Source of the DNA: Norana najaformis
Taxonomy: Eukaryota; Annelida; Clitellata; Crassiclitellata; Hormogastridae
Length of the DNA: 64,000 nucleotides
Reading direction: 5' to 3'
Assembly: GCA_964023275.1 (NCBI GenBank)
Contig: OZ029922.1
Coordinates: 2,975,034-3,039,033 of the forward strand
The notes under the pieces were generated by a model. It had not been told where the DNA came from. It saw only the letters and a program-made list of their open reading frames with translations, and made no database searches. Shown in pieces: positions 9,081-36,967 of this stretch; within the stretch, counting starts at the first letter, position 1, and every line of letters begins with the position of its first letter. Position numbers and translations under genes: made by a program.

Positions 9081-9193
9081 TCAAAGCTGATAAGTCTTGA
9101 GCATCGATAGAAAAAGAGTAACTGCGAGTTGAACTACAAAGACATTGTAGTCCGGAGTTGAAGCCGCGCTGCAAAACTCCGGAGTCGGCACAT
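9081..9193 (-). CDS. Gene A last exon: hydrophobic C-terminus
   Basis: Acceptor cttattctcctccag; stop TGA at 9081-9083. VPTPEFCSAASTPDY then VFVVQLAVTLFLSML. An overlapping longer ORF in another frame continues past this stop, but only this frame joins exon 4 and matches the paralogues. Confidence 0.82.
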
Positions 9194-9299
9194 CTGGAGG
9201 AGAATAAGACACACACAAAGCATGAAAAAAGAACAAAGTATTAGGTATTTGCAAAATATAAGTTATTTACTTACGCAGAAAGACCATAGATCTATTTAT

Positions 9300-9600
9300 T
9301 GATTATTATCAACTGCTATAGCGCCGGGGTCTAATGCCCATGGCATCAAGCGGAGGCGCAATAAACAAGCATTCGTTAGGTCAATGCCCAGAAAGTCAGT
9401 CCACAGAGACAGAGAGGCACCCAATAATGGAAATGTCAGCTGAACGACGTAATTAATGGGTTAAGACCGAAATGAGCAAAACAACAGATGCGGGAAGAGA
9501 GTTCTAAATCCTATGTCTGGCAAACTGATATAGCTAGTTTTCGGTGTAACTATAGAAAGGCAGTAAGACGACCTAGACCTACACAGTCTAGGAAATAAGG
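9300..9600. repeat. Dispersed GCGC-type repeat copy
   Basis: CTATAGCGCCGGGGTCTAATG start and GAGAGTTCTAAATCCTATG. Confidence 0.4.
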
Positions 9601-9734
9601 ATTGCTCTTTTCCGATATATATCCCATACGTGAAAACAATATGCTTTAATTAGACCTTTTCTCGTCTTCCGCAACCAGCAACCCACCTGACACTCGTAAC
9701 ATTTTTCTGCATATTGTGTTCTGCATGTCGTGTG

Positions 9735-9792
9735 GGGCACGGTAGCCGATTGGTTAGAGCACTCACAATTGCTCAGCATCATTGATTGCGCA
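9735..9792 (+). mobile_element. tRNA-derived SINE family 1, fragment
   Basis: GGCACGGTAGCCGATTGG, then AATTGCTCAGCATCATTGATTG; the B-box part is deleted. A (CATA)n tract follows. Confidence 0.6.
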
Positions 9793-9935
9793 CACACATA
9801 CATACTTACATACATACATACTTAATATAGCATACATACATACATACATACATACAAGCATACATACATACATAGATATGCATACATGCATACATACATG
9901 CATATGTACATGCATACATGGATACATACATACAT
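9788..9935. repeat. (CATA)n microsatellite
   Basis: CATACATACATA with GCAT variants. Confidence 0.95.
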
Positions 9936-10085
9936 GACTCAACGGATGCTTAAGAAGATCTCCCGTTGCGGTGAAAACCAACGAAGTGTCCAAAAGCCAG
10001 TTCATCCTCCACCTCTAAAAAGACCTGGGCAGTATTACTGGCTAATCCAATCCACAAGACTAAGCTCTGGAAAAATTAGACCTAC

Positions 10086-10240
10086 CTAAGTCCGACTGCA
10101 GCTGGCAATCGTCTTCCATTGTCCCCGAGGATTTCTGCTGGATCATCGCCCTCATAAATCCGTCGACAAAGTTGCTTGTAGCGTTTCCACAGCAGCCGTC
10201 GACGGACTTCACAAAACAACTCAGCAGGAAGTTTCTATTA
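10086..10240 (-). CDS. Gene A exon 4: C-x7-CC block
   Basis: Acceptor aactattttatttag, donor TTAG|GTAGGA (phase 2 to 1). FLLSCFVKSVDGCCGNATS, FVDGF and DCQLQSDL. NATS is a potential N-glycosylation site. Confidence 0.85.
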
Positions 10241-10399
10241 CTAAATAAAATAGTTCAGCAAAATCCCAGTTGTACGGCACATCGCTATACAGCAAATAAC
10301 TACAATGCGAAACTCAGTGACAACATTCACGAACATTTCCGTAGTTTGTGCGCTTGACACCGTGTTTTTATCACTGTTACGATGTTTGTTTTTGTTTGT

Positions 10400-10680
10400 T
10401 TGTGCAACATGGTGCTCTGTTTGGTTAGTGTGATGAGTCTGTAATCGAAGGATTGCGGATTCGATCCCGCTGAGAGGATTCCGTGTAACGACACTGGAAA
10501 TGTTGTTCCTTCACGTTTATCTCTGTCACCAAAATAATGGTATTTGGTGCCGACGCAAGCTGGGAAGAAAACGGTGAGTCCAGCGATGCACGGGCCCCAT
10601 GTCCAGGACCTTGGAATTCGTCCAGTGCCGGCTCAAAGAATGAAGATCAAGAAATGAGTGCCTCGCCTACTTTCCACTAG
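10400..10680 (+). mobile_element. tRNA-derived SINE, family 2
   Basis: B box GGATTCGATCCC, CCGTGTAACGACACTGG, TTTATCTCTGTCACC, CCAGGACCTTGGAATTCGTC, ending GAGTGCCTCGCCTAC. Between exons 3 and 4 of gene A. Confidence 0.75.
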
Positions 10681-10740
10681 AGACATATAAGCTTTTCTTA
10701 CTTTACTTCTGTATGAATTCCAAGTACGAAAAATTCTTAC

Positions 10741-10840
10741 TCGCATGGGAGTTTGTAGCTAGTTTTCGCTTCTTTGGCACAAAAGTCTTGCCACTTCTTC
10801 ACGTTCTCTGGGTTGAAGCATCGCTCATGTTTCAGATATT
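10741..10840 (-). CDS. Gene A exon 3: C-x12-C-x11-C block
   Basis: Acceptor actgttctttatag, donor GCGA|GTAAGA (phase 1 to 2). YLKHERCFNPENVKKWQDFC then KLPC. One codon shorter than the B and C copies. Confidence 0.82.
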
Positions 10841-11589
10841 CTATAAAGAACAGTTGTTCAACTAAAGGTTGTTTACTAGCTTTGACAAAATAAAGGCAGT
10901 GTCCGGTTGTGGACAATAGGCTGCAACAGAGGTGTGATGCAAGTAGGCAACTTGTGACAACCGGTTCCTCTTCTGGAAGTCGACATTGTTAACGCTTTCA
11001 AAAGAATTGAAAATTAACGCCTAACACCTGTGCTGACAATTAACTTTGTAAGGCAACTCGATACTTACGATGCTACATAAATTGTCTTTACTACTTTACG
11101 ATACATTACACAAACACAGTGATATAATGACATAGCGCTATAGTTACGTGCTCTATAGAAAGATATAAGCCAATGCATTTTCGCTCAGCATTACCATTAA
11201 TATAGCATAACCAGTGGTGGGCTGTACAACGGAAGCAGTGGGATCAAGGGGTCAAGGTCAACTGAACCTTTGCCCCAAGTGTCCTCCAAACTATAGCCCA
11301 CTTGTTTGCATTTCAATATGCACTTTTTTCCAAGAGCCATCGGATTCTGATGACGATTGTGACGAAGGTTTTACTTGAAGCGACCATCGAATGATTATTA
11401 TTCAGATATTTATAACGCGCTAATTTATGAATTCACCTTTAAAGCGAAGATAGCAGGAAAGAGATAAGTCTGAAAAAGATAAGAAGTTGCCGTGTGTTTT
11501 AATAACGGCTTTATGAAAGTCATTTAGATTAAATCATTTGCATACATGTTCATGTGTTTATTTTTGGATAAATTTCAATATGCTAGCGG

Positions 11590-12040
11590 AATTTGTCATC
11601 ACTAAGCCCTCGTCTCTCCCCACTTCTCGGACGCACAAATTGCTCCCTGTTGCCAGCCCGCGCTTAAAATTTGGGAATCGTTCCATAGCCATAGCTGCCC
11701 TACCCCTCTGGAATAAACTTCTGCGAGAATCACGACAATTATCGGGCCCATCATGTGAACTCACCGATCTTGCAATTTCTGGACAGGTCTTTAACTCAAA
11801 ACTGAAAATATTCTACTTCCACAAATTTTATCCTTATTCCTCTTCTTTCCCTTATCTCACTTTTCGGTTCAAAAACACCACCCACCATAGCCGTCTGACT
11901 GCCTGATTCTTGGATCTTGAAATGGAACCGAACCCTTCCTGCCTACCGATTTTGTTTTGACTGATGAGCTGGTTCCCGCGACTTAGTTTTCGTTGGGCGC
12001 TGTTGAAATCTCGCGTTTGCGATTACGACTACGATTATGA
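11590..12040 (+). mobile_element. LINE 3' end with C-terminal coding part
   Basis: [20 protein letters not shown] and FNSKLKIFYFHKFYP match the end of the 48-kb copy; 3' UTR TTGGGCGCTGTTGAAATC. It lies in the large intron of gene A. Confidence 0.9.
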
Positions 12041-12334
12041 AATAGATAGACTTCACTTGAATAGAACAGAATCAGGACAAACTAAGGTACTGACTGATTT
12101 ACCGTCGAAGTTTTCCTTGCACATGTAATCGGTTGATCGTCTAAGTCCTTCCGCTAAGGTGACTACGTCAGGAGTCGTCATACAACCAGTTCCATTTAGG
12201 CAGATCAGGAAATCATCGATGAGTCTGTCAAATAAACAACATCAACATCCTGATACTTGTCTTCCGGTTCAACGCCTTCGAGGTCTTAAAAGGCGATATA
12301 CATATGCTCAGCTACATATATACTTACTTCCTAC

Positions 12335-12738
12335 ATACATACGTACGTGCATGCATACATGCTTACATACGTAGGCCTACATACACACACACACATGGAA
12401 ACATGCATGTACGCATACCTACATACATGCATGCATCCACACACGCTTACATACATACGTGACATACACAAATACATGCATGCATACACACATACACGCT
12501 TACATATGGTGACATACACAAATACATTGCCACATACGCGCTTACATACATACATACCATACATATATAAATACATGCATACATACATACATACATACAT
12601 ACAATACATAAATACATGTATGCATACGCACATACATACATACATTGCCACATACGCGCTTACATACATACATACCATACATATATAAATACATGCATAC
12701 ATACATACATACATACATACATACATACATACATACGC
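12335..12738. repeat. (CATA)n microsatellite with internal duplication
   Basis: Within it a block with ATTGCCACATACGCGCTTAC occurs twice about 125 bp apart. Confidence 0.95.
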
Positions 12739-12884
12739 AGTTAGCTCTTGAAATATACATGAAAATTAATGCAAAGTAAATGCTAATTAATTAAGGACCT
12801 GCCTGCATCAATAATAGTCCTTTGTATTGCATATAACTGAAATTTCTTATAGCGCCTTCTTATTTTGTGCGGCGCTGTGTCGTC

Positions 12885-13145
12885 TATTCCGTAGCGCGCT
12901 TTGTCTGTATTCAAACGGTTGCCGGTTCGACCTTGCTGAGGAGACTCCGCGTAACGAACCCTAGAAATGTTGTTCGCCCATGCTTATCTCTATCACTGAA
13001 CATTAAAACTTGGTACCAGAGTAAAGCTGTGGTATTAACAGCAAGTCCTCCGATTAACTGACCCGTGTCCAGGACCTTGAGATTAGTCCATTGCCGGCTC
13101 AAAGGCCCAAAGAAAAGGAAATGAACGCCTCCCTTACCTCGTTTA
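12885..13145 (+). mobile_element. tRNA-derived SINE, family 2
   Basis: GCCGGTTCGACC, CGCGTAACGAACC, CCAGGACCTTGAGATTAGTC, CAAAGAAAAGGAAATGAACG. Confidence 0.75.
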
Positions 13146-13399
13146 GCTTTACAGAAAGTGCATTTAGTACAGTTTATTGTATGCATCTGGATATTTATAC
13201 TGCGCCTTTAGAATCTTCAAGGTGATTTAGAAGTCCTACTTGCAATTGTTCAGTAGTTCTTCCTTTGTGTAGATGAATTTCTGCTGGGGCTGAACTTTTA
13301 AGCCTTCAATGCATTTTGGAACTCTGTCTGAATGGCACTTTTCAGCCAAGCCAGCTGAAAACATAAAACATCGACAAAACTAGATGGATGGCAACTCAT

Positions 13400-13562
13400 A
13401 AGTGTATAAACGTGTATATATATGTCTGTATGTCTATGTATGTGTATGCACTTGTAATTGTTTATATGTGTATGTATACGTATGTATGTGTCTGTATGTG
13501 TAATTGTGCATGTATGTGCATGTATGTATGCGTATATATGTATGTAGTTGTGTATATATGTA
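13400..13562. repeat. (TATG)n microsatellite
   Basis: GTATGTATGTG variants, plus-strand orientation opposite to the CATA tracts. Confidence 0.9.
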
Positions 13563-14649
13563 TTTTTCAGATGGAGTATTTTACAGTTGGGAGGCTCGCT
13601 ATCAACAAGGTTAAGATAAACACCGTCGAGCTCGTCTAGTACCTGGATAGTAAACTCCATAAATAAAAACCAGCCAATCTCATCCGACTCAGCCAGGAAA
13701 TCTTGCGAGGGGATCGGTAATCGAGTAAAAATGCAAGGTTTGTGGTTGAAATGGTTTTAATCGTGGTTATAAGGCGCAGGCAGTTAACACAAGACTATTT
13801 TATATGGCGCATTATTAGAACCTCACACAGGTTTCCTAGTAGTTGAGAGCTACATACGGCAGCTTCACCTAACGTAAATACACTTCTGACAGCTGTATAC
13901 AATAGAACGCATAGCGTTTGTTGTTTGCGTTCTCGTTTAAGCATGGCCAAGGAACGCAGTAAGCACTGCAAGCCTGCACCTTAGTGGCAGACCTTGATAA
14001 GCCAACACAAGGCAAGCTGCTCTTATAATAGAACAGCAAAAAACCAGGTAAATCCCAAGAAAACCAATCCTTCTTTTCTCGATGACTGTACGAAAAATGA
14101 AACAACTGAGATGATATCTCTCGGACCTTTGGTTGATTGTCCGGGTTTCAGGAATCTCATCGATCGTGACTTCTGTCCAGAGCTTCTGTAAACGTTCTAC
14201 CCAGTCGATTATGATATCGGAAATCGGTTTCGCTTGGAATCGATCATCAACTAACGCCTTGCGCATTACGATAACGGCGCTATAAAAGTGTCCAGATTAG
14301 ATTTAGATTTGATTATCACTGGAAAGCCAGAAACAGGAAGAAAGTCGTAGAGATACTTTCTCTTTTCTTTATTCGTCATCGGGAAATGGTTTTAAAGGCA
14401 CTCAGCGCAAATAACCCTTCAAGATTTCCGGGGGCAGCACGAAGTGAAGTGGATTAACTTAACAGGCAACGCAAATTTATATCGTGCTTCAAGCTAAGGT
14501 CGTTATACTTCAGCCGCACAGTTTGAAATCTACAGCTGTTTCAGTTTCGTCTGGGTTTTACTGTAAAGTATTACGCAAAATACATCGCTGCTTAATTAAT
14601 TAGCGTTCACGGCTATATTGAAATGATACATGTAAAACAGCAATCATTA

Positions 14650-14805
14650 AGGGTATTTGAAGTCTCGCCTTGCAACGCACAGAGTGCGGGTTCGAGTCTC
14701 CTTTGAGCCGGTTATTGTGTAGGGATCTTGAAAATTCTTTACGCACAATTGCTTAGCGCCATCGATTGATGCTTTGTCATAAGATAGTGGCGCTTAACAA
14801 ATTCA
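14650..14805 (+). mobile_element. tRNA-derived SINE family 1
   Basis: B box GGGTTCGAGTC, GTTATTGTGTAGGGATCTTG, CAATTGCTTAGCGCCATCG and AGTGGCGCTTAACAAATTC. Confidence 0.75.
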
Positions 14806-15344
14806 CAACTGATCACAATGATGTACTGCTAGTAGAGCTGCCCGGATTCGCCTGGACAGACCCGGAATCGGTCTTGTGCGTCCTGTGTCCCGGATTGATT
14901 CCAAATTGTCCCAGAAATTGGTTTAAATGTCCACTTCACCAAATGTTCTTTTCGCCCACTAAATTCGAACAGCCGGCCTTAAATAAGTTTTACAGAATGA
15001 CCATAGAATAGAGGGTAGTTAGGTTAGTAGACCCAATAAATGACATCTGCAATTGCATCAAGCATGTATATATGAACTACGCTCGTGCTAGGCCCTGAAG
15101 CCTGGTAGGTTACTGGAATTTAATAAACGTTTTGCTGTTGAAGTTGATTCAACTTTTATATATATGCCACTTGTCTCTTGATTTGAGTCAAATCATTTGA
15201 CTGTAATTTTTAACAACTAGTTGCAGTAGATCCTACATTAGGCTGACACAACATTCGTTACATAAATAGGTACTGGCATATCGAGTGACTATGCCGGTGT
15301 CCCGGATTGGCAGATTCAAAAGTTGGAGGCCCTAACTGCTGCTT

Positions 15345-15560
15345 ATCGCAATCGTAACCAAGAAAATTTAAATTGTCACTCAAAGGTTAAGTGCAAGAAA
15401 CCAGCTAATTCAAGAGCGCTGCGTCAAGTCAGAGATACCGTGTGATGAAAAAGATCTGGTTGCCGGAAAACCAGAGAAAGAAGGAGACAGAGGAGCTGTT
15501 AGGGTGGGTTGTGTTTAGGGTGAGAGAAATGGGTAGGCGGCAAATTGGATGGATGAGAGT
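15345..15560 (-). mobile_element. LINE 3' end, related subfamily
   Basis: Plus reads AGAGCGCTGCGTCAAGTC and GGGTGGGTTGTGTTTAGG. Shared with 30405-30615 and 39660-39870. Confidence 0.7.
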
Positions 15561-17250
15561 AGAATAAGGGTAGTAGCTGCTCTAGTAGTAAGATTTGAAA
15601 ACATTGGCGCCATCCTTTATGGTTATGAAGTCTCGATAAATATTTGTCCGTATGATATCACGACGCATTGGGATTTCAACCCCGGACGCAGAGGTAAAAG
15701 TCGAACACAGCCTTGCTAACTTACCAGAGGTGCTAACTTACCAGAGGTATAAGTGAATTCCCTTTAAACTTTGAATCTTTGAATCTGTACATGCATGAGT
15801 ATTTCGAGAAATGATGGCAGAAAGAATTATGGGGTCGGCGACCTGTATGCCTATTCCCATCCCTCTGGGTGAGAATCCATTGGCTAGGCTCATTGTTAAC
15901 ATAGTCATTTCCATGATACAAAAACTGGAAACTCTCAGAAAGTTGATCGAATTGACTAACTTCATAATCATTTTCTCTTTTGGATGATTACAAGCGGGCA
16001 ACGCTTAATTTGAACGCTTTTGTAACATCGTCAATATATTCTCAATTGGATTATCAATTCCGCCCCAAAAAATTTCTGTCCGTACATTTTTTGATGAATA
16101 ACAGTTTTTGTAGGTTTGCAACCTTGATTACATTTACAACTGTAACTTGTTAGCGTTTCAATTATATAGCGCATATTCAGCGGGATGGAATAGGGAACAG
16201 CGGAGTAAGACACAGCAATATAACGGAAGAAAGAAGAGACGTGGAATTGAACGGAATTGAGATTGAGATAGAAGACAGCTCCAAGTAAGGAAAAAAAGAA
16301 GTATGACTGCGAGAACTAAAAGAAGTATGGGTAGGAATAACATTAAGTTCTATCGTTGGATTTTTGTGGTTGTGTTTGCGTCTCAGCCGAATAACCATTC
16401 GACCTTAGACCCAGCGTGGTGCCTTTTGACTTTTTGCCAAACAGTAGTAATTTCTGGAAACATATTGTCCCGAAGTTCATAGACATTGACTCTCTAGTAG
16501 CAAAAATTACAGTAACTGTCTATGGTCAGACATTACTGTGATCTTTGATATGCTTATGCAACAATGTATGGCAGACTTGTGTCTGATTTCAAAGTCCACA
16601 CCGAATGTGCTTCGACAGCAGACTGCGTGATATTCTTGTCACATTAGCGGACATTAATTTTAAGAATGAAGTAGGCGCTATAAAAATGATCAGGATTAAG
16701 CACACGTTTGTGCATGCACTGAAGGACTTTGTCGCTGGAGCGTAATCTAGACAGCAGCATTCAATAACAAGTTACTATTATTAATATTAATATGTTGTTG
16801 TTGCTATTATTATTATTATATTCATCATCATCATCATCATCATCATCATTATCACTTGTAACTGCAGTTGTAATCAGAGATTATGAAGCGCTTCTTTACA
16901 ACTTGATAACCTAAACCCACGGTCGAACAGAATAGTTTCGAAACGCTTACGGACTACAGATAAAGAAGATCAAGGAGCTGAAGCCGTAGGTTGCTAAGTT
17001 GCATATGCATTAAATGCTATACAGACCTTGAAGGAGGGATGCGATTGCGCAGATGCAGAACCCAAGCAGTTGATTTCTCATTTTCTTTCTCGCTCTTCGA
17101 TCGTCTTTCTTCTTTAACAAACAGAAAACGAAAACTCCGGACGAGTCTTTCCTATATGTAGTTGGTAACTATTGACGGGTCTGCTGTTTTTCTTGGCCAC
17201 ATCAGTTGCAAAACCACCCTTTGCAACGTGTTGTTCGTGTTCAGCGACCC
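15560..17250. other. No gene recognised
   Basis: Unique-looking AT-rich sequence with a (TTA/CAT)n run at 16790-16850. Part of the long gene A intron. Confidence 0.5.
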
Positions 17251-17269
17251 GCCTACATTAACAAACATC

Positions 17270-17470
17270 ATAAACACATAAACATATATACATAAACAAC
17301 ACGCATACATATACAACATACGTGAACGCATAAATATATGCATACGTAGATACATGCATACATTCACTCATATATGCATACGAATATACATCAACAACTT
17401 GAATACATACATACATACATATATCAACACAGTTTGGATACAGACGTACATACATGCATACACATATACG
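17270..17470. repeat. (CATA)n-type degenerate tract
   Basis: CATACATATAAC variants. Confidence 0.85.
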
Positions 17471-17757
17471 TTGACTTACATAAACATTTACAGCTACCTG
17501 AATTGCTGCTACCCATAGGGTCTCTAAGTTGTTGATACAGACCAGTATAACGTTGCTTCGCCGAAGAAATCGGACTGATAATGACGACTACTGCATGGCA
17601 CCGCTTGCGAGACAAACAGTGGACTCTTCAAACGAGCCTTTGCCCAAAAGCGCTGTATAAGTATTCTTAAAATCTATTCACCAACTCCGTTATACTCCCA
17701 CACGTAGTCTGCCAAAGTAACGCTCGTTAGATAATCCGGATTTCACTGTTTCCTGCC

Positions 17758-17836
17758 TGATTACATGAACATGAGCTGATTACATGAACATGAGCTGATT
17801 ACATGAACATGAGCTGATTACAAGAACATGAGCTAA
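17758..17836. repeat. 19-bp tandem repeat, four copies
   Basis: Unit TGATTACATGAACATGAGC, the last copy with one substitution. Confidence 0.9.
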
Positions 17837-17889
17837 ATCTTTTCGGCTTCAATTAAAAAATTAAGCGCGCCCTCTGGTTTTGTAGCGTT

Positions 17890-18360
17890 AACGAATGAGG
17901 ATAACGAAGAGGATGACAATAATTCTTATGATTATGACGATGATGAGAAAGAAGAAGATGGTGAGGGTAATGAATGTGATGAAGATGGTTTTTGCGGTGA
18001 CGATGATAAAATTACGGACAAGATGAGAACCAGGATGAAATGATCGTTTTGGTGTAAATGAAGTTGAGGAGGAGGAGGAGGAGGAGTAGGAGGAAGAAGA
18101 GAAAGATGAAGATTAGAGGTAAGGAAGGATGGTAGTGGTGATGATATGATGATGTGCATGATGATACTGAGTTAGAGGATGAGGGGAAGAATGATGATGA
18201 CGATGATTATTGAGATATCAGTGACGATTTTTAAGGCGAATATCACGATGATGACTATAACAACGACTATGATGACGGTGTCAATGATCATAATGATGAT
18301 AAAGACGTTAACGACGAAGAATTTCTTTGAATTGGCGACTGTAAAAGCTGAAGAAGAATA
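17890..18360. repeat. GAT/GAA/GAG-rich low-complexity tract
   Basis: Purine-rich triplets including (GGA)n at about 18070. Open frames here are low complexity. Confidence 0.85.
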
Positions 18361-18414
18361 ACAGTCACTTAAGCTACCTTCATACCATGGGTATGAAGTG
18401 TTAGCGATTTCATT

Positions 18415-18640
18415 TTTCTTAGCCTCGGCTTATGAGGAAGGATTGCCAGTCCTCTCCCTCGCCGTCTGTTCTTCCCACTGACAGTGTACGATCAATGTAC
18501 TCATTATGGCTGAGTTTGCTACGAGGCGCATGTAGATCCGAAATCTCGAAATAAATGTCTCCCTTGGCGGGATTTGAGCCCTGGACCTTTCGACTGAGAG
18601 TCAAGTACGTTGACTACTAGACTATCGCGCCCCTCACAAA
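18415..18640 (-). mobile_element. tRNA-derived SINE, family 3
   Basis: The minus strand begins GGGGCGCGATAGTCTAGTAG (A box) and has GGGCTCAAATCCC (B box); its 3' part reads GAGGACTGGCAATCC. Confidence 0.65.
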
Positions 18641-19400
18641 AGCTGAACCTGTATATATTTAACCAGTGCTAATCAACAAATGTGAATGGCGGATGGTTAT
18701 ACTAAGTAACTATCGATATCAGCTAGACGTAACCACCTTCAATGTTCTTCACGGACATGGGGAAAAACAACTTCCGGAGATCGCTAATCCATGATCTACA
18801 GACTGCCAAATGTGTGAAGATAAAACTAGCGCCTTTGTCTCAGTATTACAATCGTATACATTGTTAACACGGCGTAGATAATATTAATAAACAACCAACG
18901 GCCAAAACCAACATCCGCTTTCTGTTCGCAATCCTTAAGGCCCGAATTACAAAAGCACATACACAGCACTCAGATGAACTTCTGTATTTATTCCGCCGTG
19001 TACATCGTGTACTATATTACTACGCCATTAAGTACTGCGCTTTATGACTAATTATGAAAATGTGTATGTATAACTATGAGGATCTACAACCTTAAGAATC
19101 CGCCGCAGTGAAAACCGTAAATCGTTGTAAAAGTTCAGTCAAAGTTCAGTAGGTCCGGAAAAGCTATTGTGAGTCATCAGGTTGAAACAGATGAGTTTCC
19201 TAAATTCGCAACTGGTCTTAATTTGTCCTCTGTGACCTAGATCTGTCACCAAGCAGGTCTGTCTGTACATAACTAGTGTGACACATTGTGGATCGTTTCT
19301 TTCAACCTCTAACCCCAACTGCCTTCTAACGATATAGATCGTTCTGCAAGGCCGCTCATGTAATGGTCCAATGAGAATACTCTCCTCTCGAAGCCTTAAC
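18640..19400. other. No gene recognised
   Basis: AT-rich unique sequence in the gene A intron; short minus-strand open frame at 19139-19414 without recognisable content. Confidence 0.5.
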
Positions 19401-19625
19401 TCTCTTTTGGTCAAAGATCATGCAGTTCGGGGTTCGACTCCGTGTAACGACCATGGACAAGTTGTTTGCGCCCACGTGCCTCTGTTACCAAGCAGTATAA
19501 TATCCACGTAAGCTGGGAATTAAACGGCAAGTTCTGCGATGCACTGTCCAGGACCTTGGAATTCGTCTAATACCGAACCTCAAGAACCTAAAGAAAAGGA
19601 AATGAGCGCCTCTCCTAAGTGTCAC
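19400..19625 (+). mobile_element. tRNA-derived SINE, family 2
   Basis: GGGGTTCGACTCC, CGTGTAACGACCATGG, CCAGGACCTTGGAATTCGTC, AAAGAAAAGGAAATGAGCG. Confidence 0.75.
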
Positions 19626-19656
19626 TTGTAAGATATAGGATAGGGGCCTACTTTAC

Positions 19657-19810: not shown

Positions 19811-20130
19811 CTGCAACACACGTCTCTCTTATAAACCAATGCAAAACTCATAATACTCAATAGGTATAATAAGCCTTGAACCGAATGATTTAACCTGTGC
19901 ACTGGACGTTGACAGGAACACAGTTCAAGGCTCTTGGACCCTGCTACAGGTATGATCAATAGCACTCGTCCGGGTTGCCGAAGCAGCACCTTAATCGTCC
20001 CGGATCAGTGCAGCTGTTGGAGAGATGGGACCATGTGCAGAGAACAGTACGATATGGGATTATTTATAAGCACTGCGTTCATTTGCAATATATTGTAGAG
20101 GCGTTCAATCGTTATGGATTGCAAACGTAC

Positions 20131-20189
20131 TCTGAAGTGTCTTAGCGACGACAGTCAGGCACGAAACACCAAAATGAAATCGAAACCAT
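20131..20189 (-). pseudogene. Gene A exon 1 copy with 5-nt deletion
   Basis: The ATG at 20187-20189 is aligned with gene B and C starts, and the downstream TGCCTGACTGTCGTCGC motif is conserved. The distance from ATG to that motif is 25 nt rather than 30. The donor may be CAGA|GTACGT. A TATAAAT box lies at 20263-20269, at the same distance as in gene C. Confidence 0.7.
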
Positions 20190-20262
20190 TTTCCCGTTCA
20201 CGATTCTTTACTGTCTGTCTGCAAACCCAAATGTTGAATGCGGCTGGCTTTTGTCGAAGGGC

Positions 20263-20269: not shown

Positions 20270-20329
20270 TTTCTATAGTGTCGGCCTACATCTTTCCTAT
20301 TAATTACTCTACAATCCGGGACACAAACA

Positions 20330-21548: not shown

Positions 21549-21658
21549 TCAAACCCAGTCGCCTCTGAGCAAAGAAAGAACGATAATCACCACCACTGCG
21601 ATTCCCCTGTGTTGCGCCGACATCGTGCCACCGCTGCATAATGGCAAGATATTCACAG
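21549..21658 (-). CDS. Gene B last exon: hydrophobic C-terminus
   Basis: Acceptor gctatttcttgcag; stop TGA at 21549-21551. VNILPLCSGG then HRGIAVVVIIVLSLLRGDWV. Small residues (SGG) before a spacer and a hydrophobic run are typical of a GPI-attachment signal. Confidence 0.85.
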
Positions 21659-24600
21659 CTGCAAGAAATAGCATAATTTTGTTGGAAATGTTATAACATC
21701 GAGTTGAATTAACTGGTTTCGTTGGGGGTGGTTTTACTGCTATTTGTTGTCTTCTTTTGTTATTATGTTCTGCAATGTTGTTCTCTTGTTCATTTGCTGT
21801 ATCTAGCGTGGTCGATGTCATGGCGGTTATTTCTGTTGTTAACAGAACTCTCTAACATTAAAGTAACAAAGGCAAAAGTAGCAAACATGGTCACAAGTCT
21901 ATAAAGAAGCTCATTAGAAGATGTACTTTACCGTTACAGAAAACATTATGATTTGATTAGTATTATATTAGGGTTTGTTAACAATAGAACAGGATTTTAA
22001 TAGGATTAGGTGAGAAATTAGGTTAGGATTAGACATAGATTAGATTGGGATTATATAAATCGGGTTAGATCAGATCAGATAGGACATCAGACGAACCTAA
22101 TTTGGACAACAGCTGACAGTCGCCGGTTGCAGCAATTGCGTTGGTCTGTGGTTCAATAAACTTCAGCAGCTCGTCCATCAAAGCACTTGCTTTCTTTCCA
22201 CAACACCCATCAGTAGACTTCAGCTTACAGCTCAACAGCCGACTTGCAGCCCTACGCAGCATTTAATACAATTCGTTAAGATCATAAATACCATGTTGGC
22301 ATAAGCTCCTAGTTAATGTGGGACCAACTGTGCCAGCTACTACCCTTTCTGCTTTACCACCCTCGCTCTCTCCATCTGTCTGTCGTTACCCGCCTACTCT
22401 CCTGCTCCTCCTTCGTTCGTTTATGGAACTTTGGCTGCTATTTTATGAAAACAGCTGTCCTCTCGTGTCCCTGGTCATGCTAATGATTAAACTATTGATG
22501 GGGTTTGTCCAAAGTTACCTAATGAAGTTCACCCCCAACTTCTGTACACGTTCTACACACCCTTAAAGAAGCTAACGCTAATTAGTCTAATTAATTATGC
22601 TGGCTGTAAATTTAAATCCTCTTCATTGTACTTAGGACCATGCCCTATCAGAGAGGCAGGAGGGCCATTTGGCCCAGGACTCACAAAGTAAAGAGCTTCA
22701 TTTTTACACACTGTTTTTCGTCTACTTCAAAATAAAAAAGAAATATTTTCATTCGAAGCAAAGATTTTCTATTTATGATTCGATAACTAGCAACAAATCG
22801 TTCGAATTCTTTTGGAAATTGGAACACATGGGCCTCAAATTCTTTCTCTTTCTACCTCTGCCTACTTCATGCGATATATACTGGCAGGGTATATAATGGC
22901 AGGGTTGACTTGATTTCTCAGTCTGGAAAGTTCCATCGTTTGCAGTCTTCGATGCACAGTGACGACCTCGCTATGCTGCAATGCGAATCCTGATATTCTA
23001 GCTGCAGTGAAAATGCGAAGTTGCAATTATTGCATTGCATAATACTGCTGCAAAGCCATATACTTACAAACACGGCTTCTTGCTGATATCGTTTTTCCTT
23101 TGTTCATCGCAAAACTCGAACGCTTTTTCAAGTTTCTGAGAACCGAGGCATTGCGCATTTTCCTGAAAATCTTTATTAAAAAACTTACTATGTTACAAGT
23201 TATTACTAGAAGTTACTTAGTGCTAAAATAAGAAATTAAGGCAACGGAAACTTACATTATTTTACTACATTACATTACTTGAAATTCTTACTTACATAAC
23301 TACTCGGAGTAGGATTTTGATCAGTTACTACTACAAGTTACTTAAAGTTAAAAGAAGAAATCAAGGCAAGAGAAACTTACATTATCTTACTTCACCTTAC
23401 CTTACCTTACACTACACTACTTACATTGGAATTCTTACTTACATAACTACTCTTGAGTGGGATTTTAACCGTTAAAGGTTGTTTATGTATATAAGGATCC
23501 GAGTACATCTTATGCATTATTTGGGAGTAAGAAACGGAGAAAATACGACGTCTGCACGCAGAGAAAACGACGTATAAACCAGAGACACATACCGAACCCT
23601 TATTGCCTATCGATTTTATTTCACTGAGTGCCTGTGAATAAGCTGGTTCCTGCGATTTAGCTTTCGTTGGGCGCTTTAGAAATCTCGAGTTTACGATTAC
23701 AATTACTCAGAAAGAATATTTTGGAAATACAAAAGGCCGCTAATGAAAAAGTGACGATATAAAATGTAATTCTGGGTAGACCTTTCTTGTGATCGTCGCA
23801 GATGTAAAAGGTCGATCGCTTCTTTTCTTCGAACCAAGCACGAAAATCGTCTCGGTCAGCACAACTAGTATCACTCAAACAGATCAAGTAGCCTTTCACC
23901 GATCTGTCAATGAAATACAACTTTGGGCAAGAAAACTACACATCAGTCGATTTCACTGACTTCATTAACAGGCAACATCACTAAATGTCTGCCTGCAAGC
24001 GTAATTGACTGTGGCTTATTACCAGACATATATCAATGCGTTTTTAATATATTAATGTCTGAATTTTCCAGACATTAATTTTAAGTGTAGCCTATAATTA
24101 AGAATATCACTCTAGTTCATCGTAGGACTTGCTGCAGACTTTCCACAATACGCCGGCATCCATTCTTTTTCTAATTCTACTGCTTGGTAACAGTTGTGCG
24201 TGAAAAACTTCCCCGAGGTCGTTACATGGAGTCCACACAGCAACTCGAGCTCGAAATCGTTAGACCACAGACCAAACGCGCTACCGTACCGCGCACAAAT
24301 TCCAATAATTGTGGAATTTTAACAAATTGAAGTCCTAATTCACAATCGTATAAATTTTGCACTACGAAAGTGGCTGTAATGCCATCAGTTCCCATTCTCA
24401 GCTAATCTCACTTGAATACATGTATCCATTTGATTCAGTAAATAGGAAATACGTTAACAAGTGATAAGAAACAGACAGTTGCGTTTTATTTACCCTTTTA
24501 TATTTTAAATTCTTTACCTGCATAAATTTTCTATCTCTTCAATTTTGTAGGTAAAATTGTGCAGGTTATCCACTGGATATATAGCTCGACATATCGCGAT

Positions 24601-25970
24601 TTCGATTTCATCACAGGCATCCGTCCCTCTGACTATACATGGAGATCAAACTTCAATAAAGTGATATAATATTGCTTATGATTTATTAATTTATTTACCA
24701 AAACAGTAATTATCGCCTATGGGAACAGCCGTCATTTCTAGCATTTCATGGAGTTTCTTTTGATCTGAGCAAATTGACTGGGATATTTTACAATTAGGAA
24801 CGACTCCTGTAGACATCTGCGCAAGCATCCTGTAGCTGTGGATGCAAAAGTAAATAGCACCCAAATTATACCGGAAATAATTCCTGGTACGAACAATAAA
24901 ATTAATTATCTGGCAATATGGTGACCACCGAGTTTAGAATGGACAGAAACCACTAAAACTGGTAAGAACTGTTACATAAAGTCGTTCGGCGGCAGGACTT
25001 ACATTTACCAAGTCGACTAATTCTAAATGGGTTGGTGATGTATTTAAATATTCGTGTGCTTTATATTTACAAGAAACATTCATGCTTCGCATCTCCTTGT
25101 TAATAAATGCAGAAGAAACTAAACTTAATTAATGTATGTTTTATGTACGTATATAAATACTTAACATAGCGCCACTGAATCTCTCAAAAGCTCTGCGCTC
25201 GCTCGACTAAGAGGTGTTAAATTTCAAACGAACAAGTTCATAATGCTCAAATATCGGTAAGTCACCACTGCCTAAAATAAATGGGTCTATCCTTGGCAAT
25301 TACTATGTATAAATTCTTTCTTTTAAAAATCCGAGGAGGGTATTCTATACGAGTTTAAGACCAAATTGTCCAGCTGCTCCTTTCGCAGACCACGGACATC
25401 GGTATTCTGACTGTCGTTACGGTGAAAATCAGCCGACGGTTATTCATTATGCTGCATTTACTAAGCGCCACTACATAATGACTAAGCATCAATCGACGGC
25501 GCTTAGCAATTGTGAGTGAAGAACTTGCTCAAGGTCTTAATACAGTAATTGTCTCAGGGTTGGCTCATACCCTTACTATCGGCGTTACAATCCGAACGCT
25601 TTAGCAAACAGGCTATCGTGCCCCGACGATTCGAACAAGCGTCTCTGCGCAGTAGACCTCAACAGAAAGCAATGTAATGTTATGGAAAATTTATAAAGTG
25701 CTCTTGGGCATACATCAAGTGTGATCCCACCACGAGTCCAAGTCACTGGGAATTACAAATTCACCGTTACGCATCAGTGCGGGCGCTGGAGAGATGGTAT
25801 ACCCTAAGGGGAGGGGAGACCAGCATCATATAATATTATCTGATGGCATTGCGCCTATGTGCCATATACTGCGTAAATGTTCGAATTATATAGATTGAAA
25901 ACAAACCCATAAGTATCGATACGATTAGAGTCAGGCACAAAACACCAAGATGACATCGAAGAGAAGACAT
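21549..25970 (-). CDS. Gene B of the tandem 12-Cys family; exon 2 junction unresolved
   Basis: Exon 1 25907-25970 (MSSLRCHLGVLCLTLIVS signal), exon 2 about 23782-23920, exon 3 23068-23170, exon 4 22097-22251, last exon 21549-21658. Exons 2-5 join in frame and carry the family core (C-x5-C-x20-C-x12-C-x12-C-x12-C-x8-C-x7-CC-x27-C-x13-C) and the tail GIAVVVIIVLSLLRG. Exon 1 ends in phase 1, but the only AGs before exon 2 give phase 0 or 2, and splicing exon 1 directly to it hits a stop. A 44-nt candidate exon at 24792-24835 (phase 1 to 0) would restore the frame and give 204 aa (209 if exon 2 starts at 23935). Otherwise this copy is damaged. No TATA-like box was seen. Confidence 0.7.
22097..22251 (-). 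CDS. Gene B exon 4: C-x7-CC block
   Basis: Acceptor aatgctgcgtag, donor TTAG|GTTCGT (phase 2 to 1). SRLLSCKLKSTDGCCG, LMDELLKFI and TGDCQLLSKL. Same length as gene A exon 4 (155 nt). Confidence 0.88.
23068..23170 (-). CDS. Gene B exon 3: C-x12-C-x12-C block
   Basis: Acceptor gttttttaataaag, donor TGTTT|GTAAGT (phase 1 to 2). FQENAQCLGSQKLEKAFEFC then KKPC, codon for codon collinear with gene C exon 3. Confidence 0.85.
23590..23705 (+). mobile_element. LINE 3' UTR fragment
   Basis: CCGAACCCTTATTGCCTATC, TTGGGCGCTTTAGAAATC and a TTACGATTACAATTAC tail. It lies inside gene B intron 2-3, close to exon 2. Confidence 0.85.
23782..23920 (-). CDS. Gene B exon 2: first Cys block
   Basis: Donor AAAG|GTCTAC, phase 1. 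LYFIDRSVKGYLICLSDTSC then FYICDDHKK; C-x5-C-x20-C as in gene C. The start is uncertain: AG at 23921-23922 (phase 0), or one at 23936-23937 that adds FSCPK. The position equivalent to the gene C acceptor reads CC instead of AG. Confidence 0.7.
24165..24295 (-). mobile_element. tRNA-derived SINE, family 2, 5' part
   Basis: Reverse copy: TGCTTGGTAACAGTTG, GGTCGTTACATGGAGTCC, AGACCACAGACCAAACGCG. Confidence 0.65.
24792..24835 (-). CDS. Candidate extra exon of gene B
   Basis: Acceptor ttttgcatccacag, possible donor ATT|GTAAAA. With G carried over from exon 1 it reads ATGCLRRCLQESFLI. Its value is that it converts phase 1 to phase 0, which exon 2 of gene B needs. No homologue is seen in gene C, and the donor is weak. 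Confidence 0.3.
25465..25645 (-). mobile_element. tRNA-derived SINE family 1
   Basis: Reverse copy: AAGCATCAATCGACGGCGC, GAAGAACTTGCTCAAGGTC, then a degraded B box. In gene B intron 1. Confidence 0.75.
25907..25970 (-). CDS. Gene B exon 1: signal peptide
   Basis: ATG at 25968-25970; SSLRCHLGVLCLTLIVSILM with donor ATGG|GTTTGT, phase 1. Length (64 nt) and donor are identical to gene C exon 1. Confidence 0.8.
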
Positions 25971-26250: not shown

Positions 26251-27960
26251 GCATGCCATACATCCGTATTTAACTTGTACAGCTAGTTCATCATCATCAG
26301 CATTATCATCATCCTCACTTGTTTGTTGATCAAAAAGAACTTGACAAAGATACACGTTTAGCATGAAGTAAACAGGTTATTGGGAGCCCCATCATCGTGT
26401 TTATAGATCCAAAAATTAACAAAGATGAAGTAAGCAGTTTATTGCGAACAAACGGCAGACCCAGAAGGGACCATAGTTCCTCTTAATTATGGCCGCGTAT
26501 TAACAGACAAAACAAATGGCGACTAAGAACTTCTGTGAATATATTAATATATCTTAACTAATACAAATTTCTTAACTAAAGGAAAAATGGTCATACTTTT
26601 GATCCCCTGATCAAAGAGTGCAACCTAAGAACTTAAAGTTTACAACTGATTAAACATAAGTTTTATTATCATATTTTTTATGTTAATCGGGTTCACTGTT
26701 TAACATCGTTGGTAGAGAGCGGGAAAAGCCATTGCACTTGTATGTCTGCGGAAAAGTACTAAGGTACTAAGATACCCAGCCGCTGATTAGCATTGTAAAC
26801 CGTTGTGCTGTGGCATACTACAGGCCTGAGAGAGAACAAGTATTAGACTAAAGGCCTAATGGTGAACTGGTATGAATGGGATACAGAAAGATTTAAATAA
26901 TGTATGTCGGGATATTTATCATGGCAACTGAAACAGCTGACTAAATATAGAAGTGCCCCATCAAAAGTACATTTCAAATCCAAATAACTGAAAATTAGCA
27001 CGCACCTTTCACTATGTCTGGTAGACTCTATGCAATTTAAAGGCTACAAAAGGACATGAGTTTTGGGGGCACATTCCCCGTAGTTATTCAACAGAGCAAT
27101 TATCAGAGCAACACCGATGTTTCAGAGAGTTTAATTTCTACACACCAACTAGACCTGAACTTCGCAATTATTTAAGTATTAATCTGCCATATCTTCGTCT
27201 GATATTTGAACTAATCTACCATATTTTCCTACTCAGACTGGATGATCAACAAAAACCTTTCGACAAGATAGGCCTACGCAGCCCTTGGCCTGCTTAATTC
27301 GTAATGGCTGTGGAAGTAGGCCTATGCTGGAAACCTAATTTTCAAATGCACTGGTTTAAAGAAAGTCCATGGTTACATTTCACGGTAGAAAAAATACAAT
27401 CGGCTTTTAATGTACCATAGTTTGCATCAGTTAAAGCGATCCATGCACCTGAATCAGTGACTTAGCATTGGTCATCACACGATTTGGCAACTGAAAAGCG
27501 GCAAAAGGAGCTTCGACAGTTTTTATAAACCCTTATTTCGCAGTAAATCACTGTGCAACCCATACCAGAAGGCCATAAAGCATAAAATAATATAAAAGCT
27601 TATAAAAAGCTCATAAGCATGAGTAATATATAGATCAACAAAATGAACTACTCTATAAAAATTGTCTTGCTTCTACAAAACGCCAAAAACATTATAATAA
27701 AGATCTTAGAGTACTCTAAGATCTTTCATTCTAATCCTCACGAGAATACGTGTAACACGTTGTTTAAAAACTGCTATCTTCAACTATATCTCGGCTTCCA
27801 AATATATGAATCTTTAGCAAGAAACAGGTAGTCTTTCTGAATAATATTACTACAGTTCGTTAAGTTCGAAAGTGAACTTAAGAGGCTTTCAAGAACATAG
27901 GCTTTGAAAATGAAAATCTATTGCAATTTGTACACACACACAAGCGGGCATGGCCGGTCG
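26250..27960. other. Spacer between genes B and C
   Basis: No exon-like reading with Cys pattern seen; contains the 28-bp palindrome. The gene C poly(A) site should lie at its right side, but no clear signal was assigned. Confidence 0.5.
27699..27726. repeat. Perfect 28-bp palindrome
   Basis: Half-site AAAGATCTTAGAGT followed at once by its exact reverse complement. It lies 240 bp downstream of the gene C stop, between genes B and C. Confidence 0.9.
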
Positions 27961-27964
27961 TCTG

Positions 27965-34765
<6,801 letters not shown>

Positions 34766-34836
34766 ATTTTCTGCGTTCATCAAGTATCTCATCAAAGGCA
34801 ACCGCAGAATGCGGCAGACACTGAAGTCAATATCCT

Positions 34837-34844
34837 CTATATAG
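34837..34844 (-). promoter_or_regulatory. TATA box of gene C
   Basis: The minus strand reads CCCTATATAGAGG here, 72-80 bp upstream of the gene C ATG. The equivalent site in the gene A copy reads TATAAAT and in the orphan copy TGTATACA. Position and conservation support a core promoter; the start site itself is not seen. Confidence 0.65.
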
Positions 34845-35049
34845 GGCCCACAGCTAGGCAGCGTGTACTTAATTGGCTCGTCATTTTGGATATGTAATTC
34901 AACCTATGCGTATATAAACTGGGCCATTCACTTGTTTGTACGTTAAAATCTATAAGGTCTAACCAATTAACTACAATTTATATGACTTAATGAAGAAAGC
35001 CACCGTAAACGTTATAATGTATCCATCGTTATCTGAATAGCTAGTTTTA

Positions 35050-35330
35050 ATAGTGCTTTTAAAGAACCTCTTAAGGGACCAAATACGCGGCCAGATCAAA
35101 TAAGGTGCGTCTTAAGATAAGCTGAGAAAATGTTTCCGGAACTGTATTTGACTGTGCAGTTCGGATTTTGAAAGGAAGACTGTGCCAGACGGCCGTGGTC
35201 AGATACTTAATAAAGGGCATAATACCGAGCCCTATGAGAAACCGCACAGAATTGGTGCGCATATGAAATTGTGAGATTTGGGTAATGAGTGAAGACGGTG
35301 TTGAAAATGAAATCATGAGTAAAATTACGC
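35050..35330. repeat. Dispersed repeat copy inserted in the gene C upstream region
   Basis: TAGTGCTTTTAAAGAACCTC then GACTGTGCCAGACGGCCG; same class as 57660-57960. The minus-strand open frame here is part of the repeat. Confidence 0.55.
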
Positions 35331-35494
35331 AATCACTGACTGAAAGGTCAACAACAACTGCTTTTATTCAGTATCAGACAAAGAAGACCAGACCAGACCT
35401 TTTGTAGCACTTTTTTCAGGGATGAAATTATACATTTACACTTGTACAGAATGGACTGCAACCTCGAAAGAGAAATCACAGATGAGCTCTGTAA

Positions 35495-35650
35495 AATATT
35501 AAGTGAAACAAGTTTTGTTTATACATTTTAAAGTTCAGTAACATTTGCAATAACATTTGCAATTTTCAATAACATTTAATATTTAACGTTTATTATTAAG
35601 TGAAACAAGTTTTGTTTATACATTTTAAAGTCCAATAACATTTGCGCAGA
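35495..35650. repeat. 50-bp direct duplication
   Basis: TTAAGTGAAACAAGTTTTG to ACATTTTAAAGT occurs at about 35499-35550 and again at 35595-35645 with one or two changes. Confidence 0.85.
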
Positions 35651-35939
35651 TGTTTTTAAGCAACCAATAACTAATTTAACGAGCAACTCGCTTTGTATTG
35701 ACTTATTAAATGTCATATGCTTTTAAAATGTTGCTTTTAAAGTATCTTAGAACTGGTATTGCTATGATATTATAAGGTAATAAGTAAATGTTCACAGTTT
35801 TATATAGCGACCATATACATACCCTTGGCTCTGCTCACTTGTTACTGTGGCATTCTAGACAAAGATGTAAATGAGGCAGAGTTTTATTGAAAGGTTCTTT
35901 ATAGTTAAATGACATATGCTTAATCATTGCATGTCAAAG

Positions 35940-36140
35940 CTCAGGACTCAGAGATATGCAAACTGAATCAGTAAACATAAACACAAAGACAAATTGAAAC
36001 AAACAAAGACACCAAAGACAAACGAATGGTTATAGTCCAAATAAGATCAACTTGCAAAGAGGCAGAGGCAGAATCAAACAGCCGAGGAGAGAGATTACAG
36101 GATGAATATTCTTGGTAGAAAAGGGCAGATTACACACGCT
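35940..36140 (-). promoter_or_regulatory. Shared upstream module, displaced from gene C
   Basis: Homologous to 26090-26250 but 1.2 kb from the gene C ATG. Between them lie a LINE-like remnant (35050-35330) and a 50-bp direct duplication. The proximal part of the promoter (to about 34910) stays beside exon 1. Inference: repeats inserted into the gene C promoter. Confidence 0.4.
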
Positions 36141-36908
36141 TTTGTAACTCCAATCCCTTCATAAAATCTAAAACAGTGGAAAGTGAATAGATGTTTTTGC
36201 CTGTTGCTACAAGCAGTTTGAGTGGGTTATATGTCTGAGGCTGAGGCGTGGTTATGTTTCCTTTTTACAGAAGTGAAGATGTTGCAGTGGTCAGTGATGG
36301 CATTTCTCATGCAGCAGTTCCATGTGGACTTTACAATTCTGGAAATTGTTGCTGTGTAAACACGGCAATTCAGGTGACAGAAGCTAAAGATCAGTTACCC
36401 AATAATCGACTTGAGTGTGATTTGTTACACTGTAATTTTGCACTGCAATTTGTTACACTGGCAGAATAAAGCTGCAGTACCACTTTACGACTGATTGGGA
36501 CTTTTGTTGAATATAGTGTACGAGATTTAAATGGGTCATAAAGTTGACATTATTTGATAATTGATTGGATATCGCTGCAAAAAGTGTATAAGAAATTACC
36601 CGAATCGAAAATTGACACTAGCTTATCAATTCAATCATGTGCTGAATGTAGTGCCTTTACTCAATACCAGAACTGACAAAGTATGTGAAATGCTCTAAAA
36701 GTCGTGTTGCCACAAATTTGTTGCGAAGAGCTACATCACGCTCTTGAACGATATGCGTTGAGCTGAGACATGCAGTCCGATAATGCTGAAAGTATTTTAA
36801 AATATTGTGTACTGTTGTAAAGTGACTTGTCAAACGTTTTGTTTGGGTTTATAATTCATCTCAGTCTCTTTCTGAGTAGGTAAATGATTACCAGCGCTAT
36901 TCTGGAGG

Positions 36909-36967
36909 CTAAAATTGGAATTGGTAGTTAGGCAGAAGAAATCAAGAAGAAACTGCACAGAAGACAT
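36909..36967 (-). pseudogene. Orphan exon 1 copy (fourth family member, remnant)
   Basis: ATG at 36965-36967, then SSVQFLLDFFCLTTNSNF. It aligns with gene C exon 1 and its 5' flank over about 120 bp (to about 37050). An Asp interrupts the hydrophobic core and the GT donor is replaced by CC. TGTATACA stands at the TATA position (37027-37034). No downstream family exons lie between it and gene C, so it is a duplicated promoter/first exon left without a body. Confidence 0.65.

What the first reader, a model, noticed from the sequence alone, without database searches (positions are those of the whole stretch)
9081..36967. Previously uncalled tandem cluster of 12-Cys secreted, probably membrane-anchored proteins
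Seen: three sets of minus-strand exons (A 10.8/10.2/9.1 kb; B 23.9/23.1/22.2/21.6 kb; C 31.1/30.3/28.8/28.0 kb) share intron phases and nearly invariant Cys spacing: C-x5-C-x20-C-x12-C-x12-C-x11/12-C-x8-C-x7-CC-x24/27-C-x13-C, with B and C starting from a signal-peptide exon and all ending in a hydrophobic tail after the last Cys. Sequence between the Cys has diverged strongly (for example SVDGCCG, STDGCCG, SIRRCCG), while the frame and spacing are kept, which suggests selection on a disulfide fold with free surface change, as in recognition, venom-like or reproductive proteins. The function is inference. I know no named family with this exact pattern.
Basis: partly seen in the sequence, partly recalled or inferred. 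Interest (0 to 1): 0.88.

Follow-up and report, generated by a model that had tools for sequence, protein, structure and literature searches.

The report
Four-gene cluster of anchored 14-cysteine proteins
An animal genome carries four side-by-side genes for small secreted, membrane-tethered proteins that keep the same 14 cysteines while almost everything else has changed; they look like a distant branch of a poorly understood worm and insect protein group, so the genes are real but only modestly new.

Summary
Four tandem minus-strand genes lie here: A, B and C complete in the window, and D, whose last three exons lie just left of it. Each has six exons; all 20 introns are GT-AG with phases 1-2-1-2-1. 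Each encodes a signal-peptide-like start, 14 conserved Cys (not 12) at C-x7-C-x22/23-C-x8-C-x5-C-x20-C-x12-C-x12-C-x11/12-C-x8-C-x7-CC-x24/27-C-x13-C, and a hydrophobic C-terminus. Across four mature chains 14 of 14 Cys columns are invariant, but only 9 of 154 others. 'No named family' is weakened: 3 of 4 proteins match Pfam CPG4 at E 9e-7 to 7e-4, and C also DUF19 (5e-4) and DUF1397 (9e-3), all below curated cut-offs; 0 of 10 Cys-preserving shuffles match CPG4. Best reading: a divergent, membrane-anchored branch of CPG4/DUF19-type secreted Cys-rich proteins, probably surface-binding. Function is inferred; transcription and positive selection are untested.

The parts
17027..17081 (-). gene A exon 1: start codon and signal peptide
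   Evidence: MRNQLLGFCICAIASLLQ; GT donor, phase 1
   Evidence: AG/GT, phase 2; profile E 2.2e-22 (profile includes it)
   Evidence: AG/GT, phase 1
10741..10840 (-). gene A exon 4 (Cys 7-9)
   Evidence: AG/GT, phase 2
10086..10240 (-). gene A exon 5 (Cys 10-13, CC-G motif)
   Evidence: AG/GT, phase 1; a second AG 6 bases downstream is possible
9081..9193 (-). gene A exon 6 (Cys 14, hydrophobic tail, stop)
25907..25970 (-). gene B exon 1: signal peptide
   Evidence: MSSLRCHLGVLCLTLIVSILM
23782..23903 (-). gene B exon 3 (Cys 4-6)
23068..23170 (-). gene B exon 4 (Cys 7-9); acceptor AAG is weak
22097..22251 (-). gene B exon 5 (Cys 10-13)
21549..21658 (-). gene B exon 6 (Cys 14, tail, stop)
34702..34765 (-). 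gene C exon 1: signal peptide
   Evidence: [21 protein letters not shown]
30990..31111 (-). gene C exon 3 (Cys 4-6)
30201..30303 (-). gene C exon 4 (Cys 7-9)
28722..28867 (-). gene C exon 5 (Cys 10-13)
27965..28077 (-). gene C exon 6 (Cys 14, tail, stop)
4158..4224 (-). gene D exon 1: signal peptide (least certain exon of D)
   Evidence: MSAVGRFRIAVGVATFYIVFPL; most hydrophobic of 8 ATG...G|GT candidates listed between 2070 and 9080, next best 2.12 against 2.21
1939..2056 (-). gene D exon 2 (Cys 1-3)
   Evidence: tblastn; splice sites
301..428 (-). gene D exon 3 (Cys 4-6); exons 4-6 lie left of the window at -225..-129, -2467..-2322, -3240..-3080 (0 = base just left of base 1)

Best explanation
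A tandem cluster of four old duplicate animal genes, each coding for a secreted protein of 219-238 residues with one 14-Cys extracellular domain held at the membrane by its C-terminus. The domain is a divergent relative of the CPG4/DUF19/DUF1397-type secreted Cys-rich proteins of nematodes and insects. Shown: gene structure, signal-peptide-like N-termini, Cys scaffold, hydrophobic tails, sub-threshold profile matches. Inferred: up to seven disulfides pin a mostly helical domain so that the intervening surface can change; a lipid (GPI) anchor in A-C and probably a true membrane span in D hold the domain at a cell surface, where each copy binds its own extracellular ligand, most likely in defence or barrier biology, as infection-induced DUF19 genes in C. 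elegans and the infection-induced 27 kDa haemolymph protein in insects suggest.
For: Four gene models with identical phases and 20 of 20 GT-AG introns; exon lengths differ between copies only by multiples of three, which follows from the shared phases. D was inferred from window exons and then completed from sequence outside the window. 14 of 14 Cys columns invariant versus 9 of 154 others. CPG4: C 9e-7, B 3.8e-5, D 7.3e-4; DUF19: C 4.9e-4; DUF1397: C 8.6e-3. Control: 0 of 10 Cys-fixed shuffles hit CPG4, 1 of 10 hits DUF19 at 0.45. Small residues (CSA, CSG, CSS) follow the last Cys and a short hydrophobic run of 11-15 residues lies near the end of A-C, a GPI-signal-like layout. DUF19 in C. elegans: 51 genes, 42 with signal peptide, 14 up-regulated in at least one infection, 140-220 aa (PMC3534327, passage). 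An oyster DUF19 protein is on record (PMC10058639, table row).
Against: No profile match reaches its curated cut-off (29.8 of 32.7, 20.4 of 23.2, 15.9 of 25.7 bits for C), A matches nothing, a hand-made consensus did no better than C (CPG4 1.6e-5, no DUF19) and a D-plus-consensus chimera matched nothing. The CPG4 search of the whole genome had nothing over the cut-off. No relative at E<=10 in the protein database, although that database seems poor in animal proteins. No expression data. dN below dS gives no sign of positive selection. The tails of A-C end in a few polar or charged residues (KTYQL, RGDWV, RRFE), unusual for a GPI signal, and D ends in 24 hydrophobic residues plus RKSGGTQWLSI. 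Fold evidence is weak: exon 3 alone models as helices at pLDDT 72 in the best of five models (the others 52-57), exon 5 at 45.
Confidence: 0.55

Rival explanations
1. A separate lineage-specific Cys-rich family; the CPG4/DUF19 matches are convergence of Cys spacing and helix composition.
For: All matches are below curated cut-offs and A has none. In B and C the CPG4 match covers only Cys 3 to 8.
Against: 3 of 4 proteins match the same model in the same part (C residues 51-123, B 45-124, D 35-122); 0 of 10 Cys-fixed shuffles do.
Confidence: 0.3
2. Reproductive or egg-coat proteins: fast-changing gamete or extraembryonic matrix components, in line with the CPG4 name.
For: CPG-4 is one of nine chondroitin proteoglycan core proteins first found in C. 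elegans (PMC11632948, passages); tandem fast-diverging secreted genes are common in reproduction (recalled).
Against: No low-complexity glycosaminoglycan-bearing region; SG dipeptides number 1, 1 and 0 in A, B and C and 3 in D by reading its sequence, at non-shared places. CPG-4 itself has no function entered in that review's table.
Confidence: 0.2
3. Venom-like or secreted effector proteins.
For: DUF1397 was recruited to scutigeromorph centipede venom (PMC6878950, passage).
Against: A hydrophobic C-terminal anchor in all four argues against a freely secreted product; DUF1397 is the weakest of the three matches (8.6e-3).
Confidence: 0.04
4. Decaying duplicates or chance exon-like frames.
For: No transcripts seen; no AATAAA or ATTAAA within 1200 bases after the stop of B.
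Against: Four open frames without a stop, 20 of 20 canonical introns, all 14 Cys kept in each; shuffles.
Confidence: 0.02

Closest known systems
Pfam CPG4 (PF15481, chondroitin proteoglycan 4 domain)
   Same: Best profile match in B, C and D, over about Cys 3 to 8.
   Different: Below cut-off; profile is 94 positions, covering less than half of the 14-Cys block; no low-complexity proteoglycan region.
Pfam DUF19 (PF01579), large secreted Cys-rich family of C. elegans
   Same: Protein C matches 21-152 of 157 positions, nearly the whole domain; similar size and signal peptide.
   Different: Below cut-off; seen in one of four proteins; whether DUF19 proteins carry such a membrane tail was not examined.
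Pfam DUF1397 (PF07165); insect 27 kDa haemolymph protein (link between the two recalled)
   Same: Protein C matches positions 81-205 of 207 weakly.
   Different: E 8.6e-3, below cut-off; the insect protein is found in haemolymph (PMC4224417, passages), so presumably soluble.
Grctm proteins of Biomphalaria glabrata (Guadeloupe Resistance Complex)
   Same: Clustered membrane-anchored genes with a divergent extracellular part (PMC5310918, passages).
   Different: Grctm6 is about 68 kDa with extracellular and intracellular parts over 200 residues each; here the tail after the hydrophobic run is 4 to 11 residues. No sequence comparison was made.
Angiogenin / RNase A family
   Same: Only PDB family matched by the four-protein profile, E 1e-3 to 0.18 over 47 chains.
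   Different: No CKxxNTF motif and no invariant His in A-C; matches sit on a Cys-rich stretch; judged chance.

Membership tests
CPG4 (PF15481) | Profile score at or above the curated cut-off of 32.7 bits | tested here: not met
   C 29.8, B 24.6, D 20.5 bits, A none
CPG4 (PF15481) | Similarity beyond Cys spacing | tested here: met
   0 of 10 Cys-fixed shuffles of B and C matched; a small control
Chondroitin proteoglycan core protein | Chondroitin-bearing SG sites in a low-complexity region | tested here: not met
   SG counts 1, 1, 0 in A, B, C, 3 in D by reading, none in a low-complexity region; the chemistry itself is not testable
DUF19 (PF01579) | Profile score at or above 23.2 bits | tested here: not met
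   C 20.4 bits; A, B, D none
DUF1397 (PF07165) | Profile score at or above 25.7 bits | tested here: not met
   C 15.9 bits with the mature part, 16.3 with the whole protein
GPI-anchored proteins | Signal peptide, small omega residues, spacer, hydrophobic C-terminus | tested here: inconclusive
   Layout fits in A-C; polar ends and D's long span do not; no dedicated predictor at hand
RNase A / angiogenin | CKxxNTF motif and catalytic His | tested here: not met
   0 of 3 proteins (A-C) with the motif; no invariant His
CPG4/DUF19-type fold | Three-dimensional fold | not testable with these tools

The most novel reading that the evidence does not exclude
A new clade of membrane-anchored 14-Cys recognition proteins: a disulfide scaffold reused as a variable surface receptor, held in a tandem cluster that diversifies by duplication, and bridging the nematode DUF19/CPG4 and insect DUF1397 families into one ancient animal superfamily.
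Probability: 0.15. Interest if true: 0.7.

Novelty: new variant of a known kind. Interest (0 to 1): 0.4.

Why it matters
Three Pfam families of largely unknown function (CPG4, DUF19, DUF1397) are all touched by one protein of this cluster (C), so the cluster offers a possible sequence bridge between them and a membrane-anchored form to test. It also gives exact gene models for genes that short, low-identity exons make easy to miss.

Tried and rejected
Protein database search with the A-C alignment: 2051 candidates, none at E<=10. GTDB genome contigs and viral contigs: 54 and 114 pattern matches, none a relative by tblastn. PDB sequence search: with A1, angiogenins and two unrelated chains, best E 0.027; with C, three angiogenins, best 0.0078; with A4, 47 chains, angiogenins, best 0.001; judged chance. 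Rfam: 0 matches at the gathering score. tRNA: 0. Structure of single exons: helical but low confidence; the PDB fold search of the exon 3 model gave 4 matches at E<=10 and none at E<=0.001. A hand-made consensus and a D-plus-consensus chimera in Pfam gave no gain. Other Pfam families listed for natural proteins of the cluster had E 0.2 or worse. Whole-genome CPG4 search: 0 matches over the cut-off, 2 weak ones (E 0.56 and 0.65) on other contigs that could not be read; it did not list the window's own copies, so it is too insensitive to count family members; 0 of its 14 control genomes rang. A whole-genome search with protein C found five of C's own exons and nothing else at E<=1e-3, not even A, B or D, so equally insensitive. 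Genome searches with DUF19 and with protein D did not complete. Positive selection cannot be tested with four copies at near-saturated dS. Paper searches, seen as listings: DUF19/CPG4/hemolymph protein, 11 papers, most for other DUF19xx names; T20D4.11-like, 1; chondroitin proteoglycan 4, 4; PF15481, 0; DUF19 as a whole word, 10; DUF1397 and haemolymph terms, 36 with 30 listed; CPG-4 with elegans, 2; a six-term mollusc query, 15. Passages were read from seven papers; no paper was read whole. No claim is made that this cluster is absent from print.
Full report
What was checked. I re-read the three exon sets on the minus strand in three frames and built gene models from splice sites. Each of A, B and C has six exons. 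Exon lengths are A 55/115/122/100/155/113, B 64/115/122/103/155/110, C 64/115/122/103/146/113; cumulative phases are 1-2-1-2-1 in each, all donors are GT and all acceptors AG, and no internal stop occurs. Proteins are 219, 222 and 220 residues. Two junctions are less certain: A exon 5 has a second possible AG six bases downstream, and B exon 4 uses a weak AAG acceptor. Junctions were chosen with help from the shared phases, so phase agreement is partly built in; the Cys spacing inside exons is not.

The Cys pattern. C has one further Cys, two residues beyond the last shared one.

Chance. Local alignment scores of the pairs are 258, 343 and 401 against shuffle maxima of 64, 59 and 58 in 500 shuffles each; with Cys masked 116, 201 and 254 against 52, 48 and 45. 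In six frames of the window the motif C-x5-C-x20-C occurs 8 times against a mean of 1.0 and a maximum of 4 in 30 first-order Markov sequences; the 8 were not itemised, and low-complexity repeats may add to them. tblastn between copies gives matches down to E 7e-11 (its output was cut). Exon profiles, which include the exons themselves, give the window copies E 5e-9 or better.

A fourth gene. tblastn showed two more family exons at 1939-2056 and 301-428, and a signal-peptide candidate at 4158-4224 was the most hydrophobic of eight start-to-donor candidates listed between 2070 and 9080, by a narrow margin (2.21 against 2.12). The window's genome became reachable: 608,420,607 bases, 17 contigs, window at C10:2975034-3039033. 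In 50 kb to the left an exon profile built without D found D's exon 5 at E 2.2e-6. Exon 4 was then picked from five Cys-pattern candidates. For exon 6 a first search with the exact gap and a length limit gave no convincing candidate; a wider one, gaps 8 to 18, gave as its most hydrophobic candidate one with gap 13. So for exons 4 and 6 the spacing was partly a search criterion. The completed D has 238 residues, lengths 67/118/128/97/146/161, the same phases, and gaps 7-23-8-5-20-12-12-12-8-7-0-24-13. Profiles of all six exons over 344 kb (250 kb left of the window, the window, 30 kb right of it) find the exons of A, B, C and D and nothing else at E below 0.001; the only other match below 0.1 is a hydrophobic frame at 20108-20197 against the signal-exon profile, E 0.0027.

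Conservation. In the four mature chains 14 of 14 Cys columns are invariant, and 9 of 154 ungapped other columns (F, Y, E, E, S, S, G, L, V); pairwise identities run from 34 of 169 (B-D) to 66 of 169 (B-C). For A-C alone it is 14 of 14 and 25 of 149. NG86 gives dN and dS of 0.71 and 1.60 (A-B), 0.62 and 2.65 (A-C), 0.51 and 0.94 (B-C), with third positions changed most in all three pairs. This fits purifying selection on the reading frame on average; dS is near or past saturation, D was not included, and positive selection at single sites can be neither shown nor excluded.

Secretion and anchor. All four begin with a hydrophobic N-terminus (best 10-residue Kyte-Doolittle mean 2.2 to 3.1) with small residues at plausible cleavage sites. 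A, B and C have a hydrophobic run of 11 to 15 residues near the end, after small residues that directly follow the last Cys (CSA, CSG, CSS), then 4 or 5 mostly polar residues. D ends in 24 hydrophobic residues and RKSGGTQWLSI; part of that stretch is encoded by a simple ATT/ATC-type run. Membrane attachment is well supported; lipid anchor for A-C and protein span for D is my reading, made by rule of thumb and without a dedicated predictor.

Family. Pfam: whole C matches CPG4 at 2.4e-6, DUF19 at 1e-3, DUF1397 at 6.4e-3, B matches CPG4 at 6.9e-5, A nothing; mature parts: C 9e-7, 4.9e-4, 8.6e-3 and B 3.8e-5, A nothing; D CPG4 at 7.3e-4 (first three exons alone 7.6e-3). None reaches the curated cut-off. 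A hand-made consensus matched CPG4 at 1.6e-5 but not DUF19 or DUF1397, and a chimera of D with the consensus matched nothing. Ten shuffles that keep every Cys and both ends in place (five of C, five of B) gave 0 matches to CPG4 and 1 to DUF19 at E 0.45. That the three Pfam families are related to each other is suggested only by their matching one protein in overlapping places; I did not test it. RGM_N appears for C at E 1.9, which is noise.

What is known of these families, from passages read: C. elegans has 51 DUF19 genes, 42 with signal peptide, 140-220 aa, 14 up-regulated in at least one infection (PMC3534327); one is called 'worm-specific Cys-rich secreted protein' (PMC3527274); an oyster DUF19 protein is listed in a table (PMC10058639; a value of 19 there looks like its mass, column heads not seen), so the label is not worm-only; the insect 27 kDa haemolymph protein is given as of unknown function and rises on fungal challenge (PMC4224417); DUF1397 was recruited to venom in scutigeromorph centipedes (PMC6878950); CPG-4 is a chondroitin proteoglycan core protein with no function entered in the review's table (PMC11632948). 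That the 27 kDa haemolymph protein belongs to DUF1397 is recalled.

Setting. To the right lies a focadhesin gene on the same strand (window 40831-41145, E 5e-7, above cut-off; 43812-44288, E 0.03, below it), which points to an animal (that focadhesin is an animal gene is recalled). The phylum was not determined; a mollusc would fit genome size and repeats, but that is a guess.

Verdict. The genes are real, the pattern is real, and the cluster is one gene and two or three exons per gene larger than reported. It is best filed as a divergent membrane-anchored variant of a known but poorly understood kind of secreted Cys-rich protein. Membership in CPG4, DUF19 or DUF1397 is not claimed, since no curated cut-off is met; that it works like an anchored extracellular binding domain is the most likely reading, with infection or barrier biology ahead of reproduction and well ahead of venom.

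Noticed in passing
window 40831-41145 and 43812-44288, minus strand: Pieces of a focadhesin gene (PF11229, E 5e-7 above cut-off, and E 0.03 below it) on the same strand just upstream of the cluster.
   Followed up: partly
window 46878-48268, plus strand: Reverse transcriptase domain split over two overlapping frames (RVT_1, E 8e-8 and 8.8e-9), so apparently a broken retroelement copy; LINE-type by recall.
   Followed up: no
window 49286-50830: Tandem array of a 40-base unit, 39 copies, 96% matches, also reported with a 237-base period.
   Followed up: no
window 61070-62268: Tandem array of a 376-base unit, 3.2 copies, 82% matches.
   Followed up: no
window 14670-14806 and elsewhere: A dispersed repeat of about 137 bases with 9 matches in the window including itself, four of them inside introns of A, B and C, on either strand.
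   Followed up: partly
window 20108-20197, minus strand: Short hydrophobic frame matching the signal-exon profile at E 0.0027, between A and B; probably composition, possibly a relic exon.
   Followed up: no
G000:C11:5980338-5980484 and G000:C1:55307975-55308145: Weak CPG4 matches (19.7 and 19.5 bits, E 0.56 and 0.65) elsewhere in the genome, possible dispersed relatives or noise; sequence could not be read.
   Followed up: partly
mature domains A-D: The four-protein profile's only PDB matches are angiogenins (best E 0.001), on a Cys-rich stretch; the catalytic motif is absent from A-C; judged chance.
   Followed up: yes
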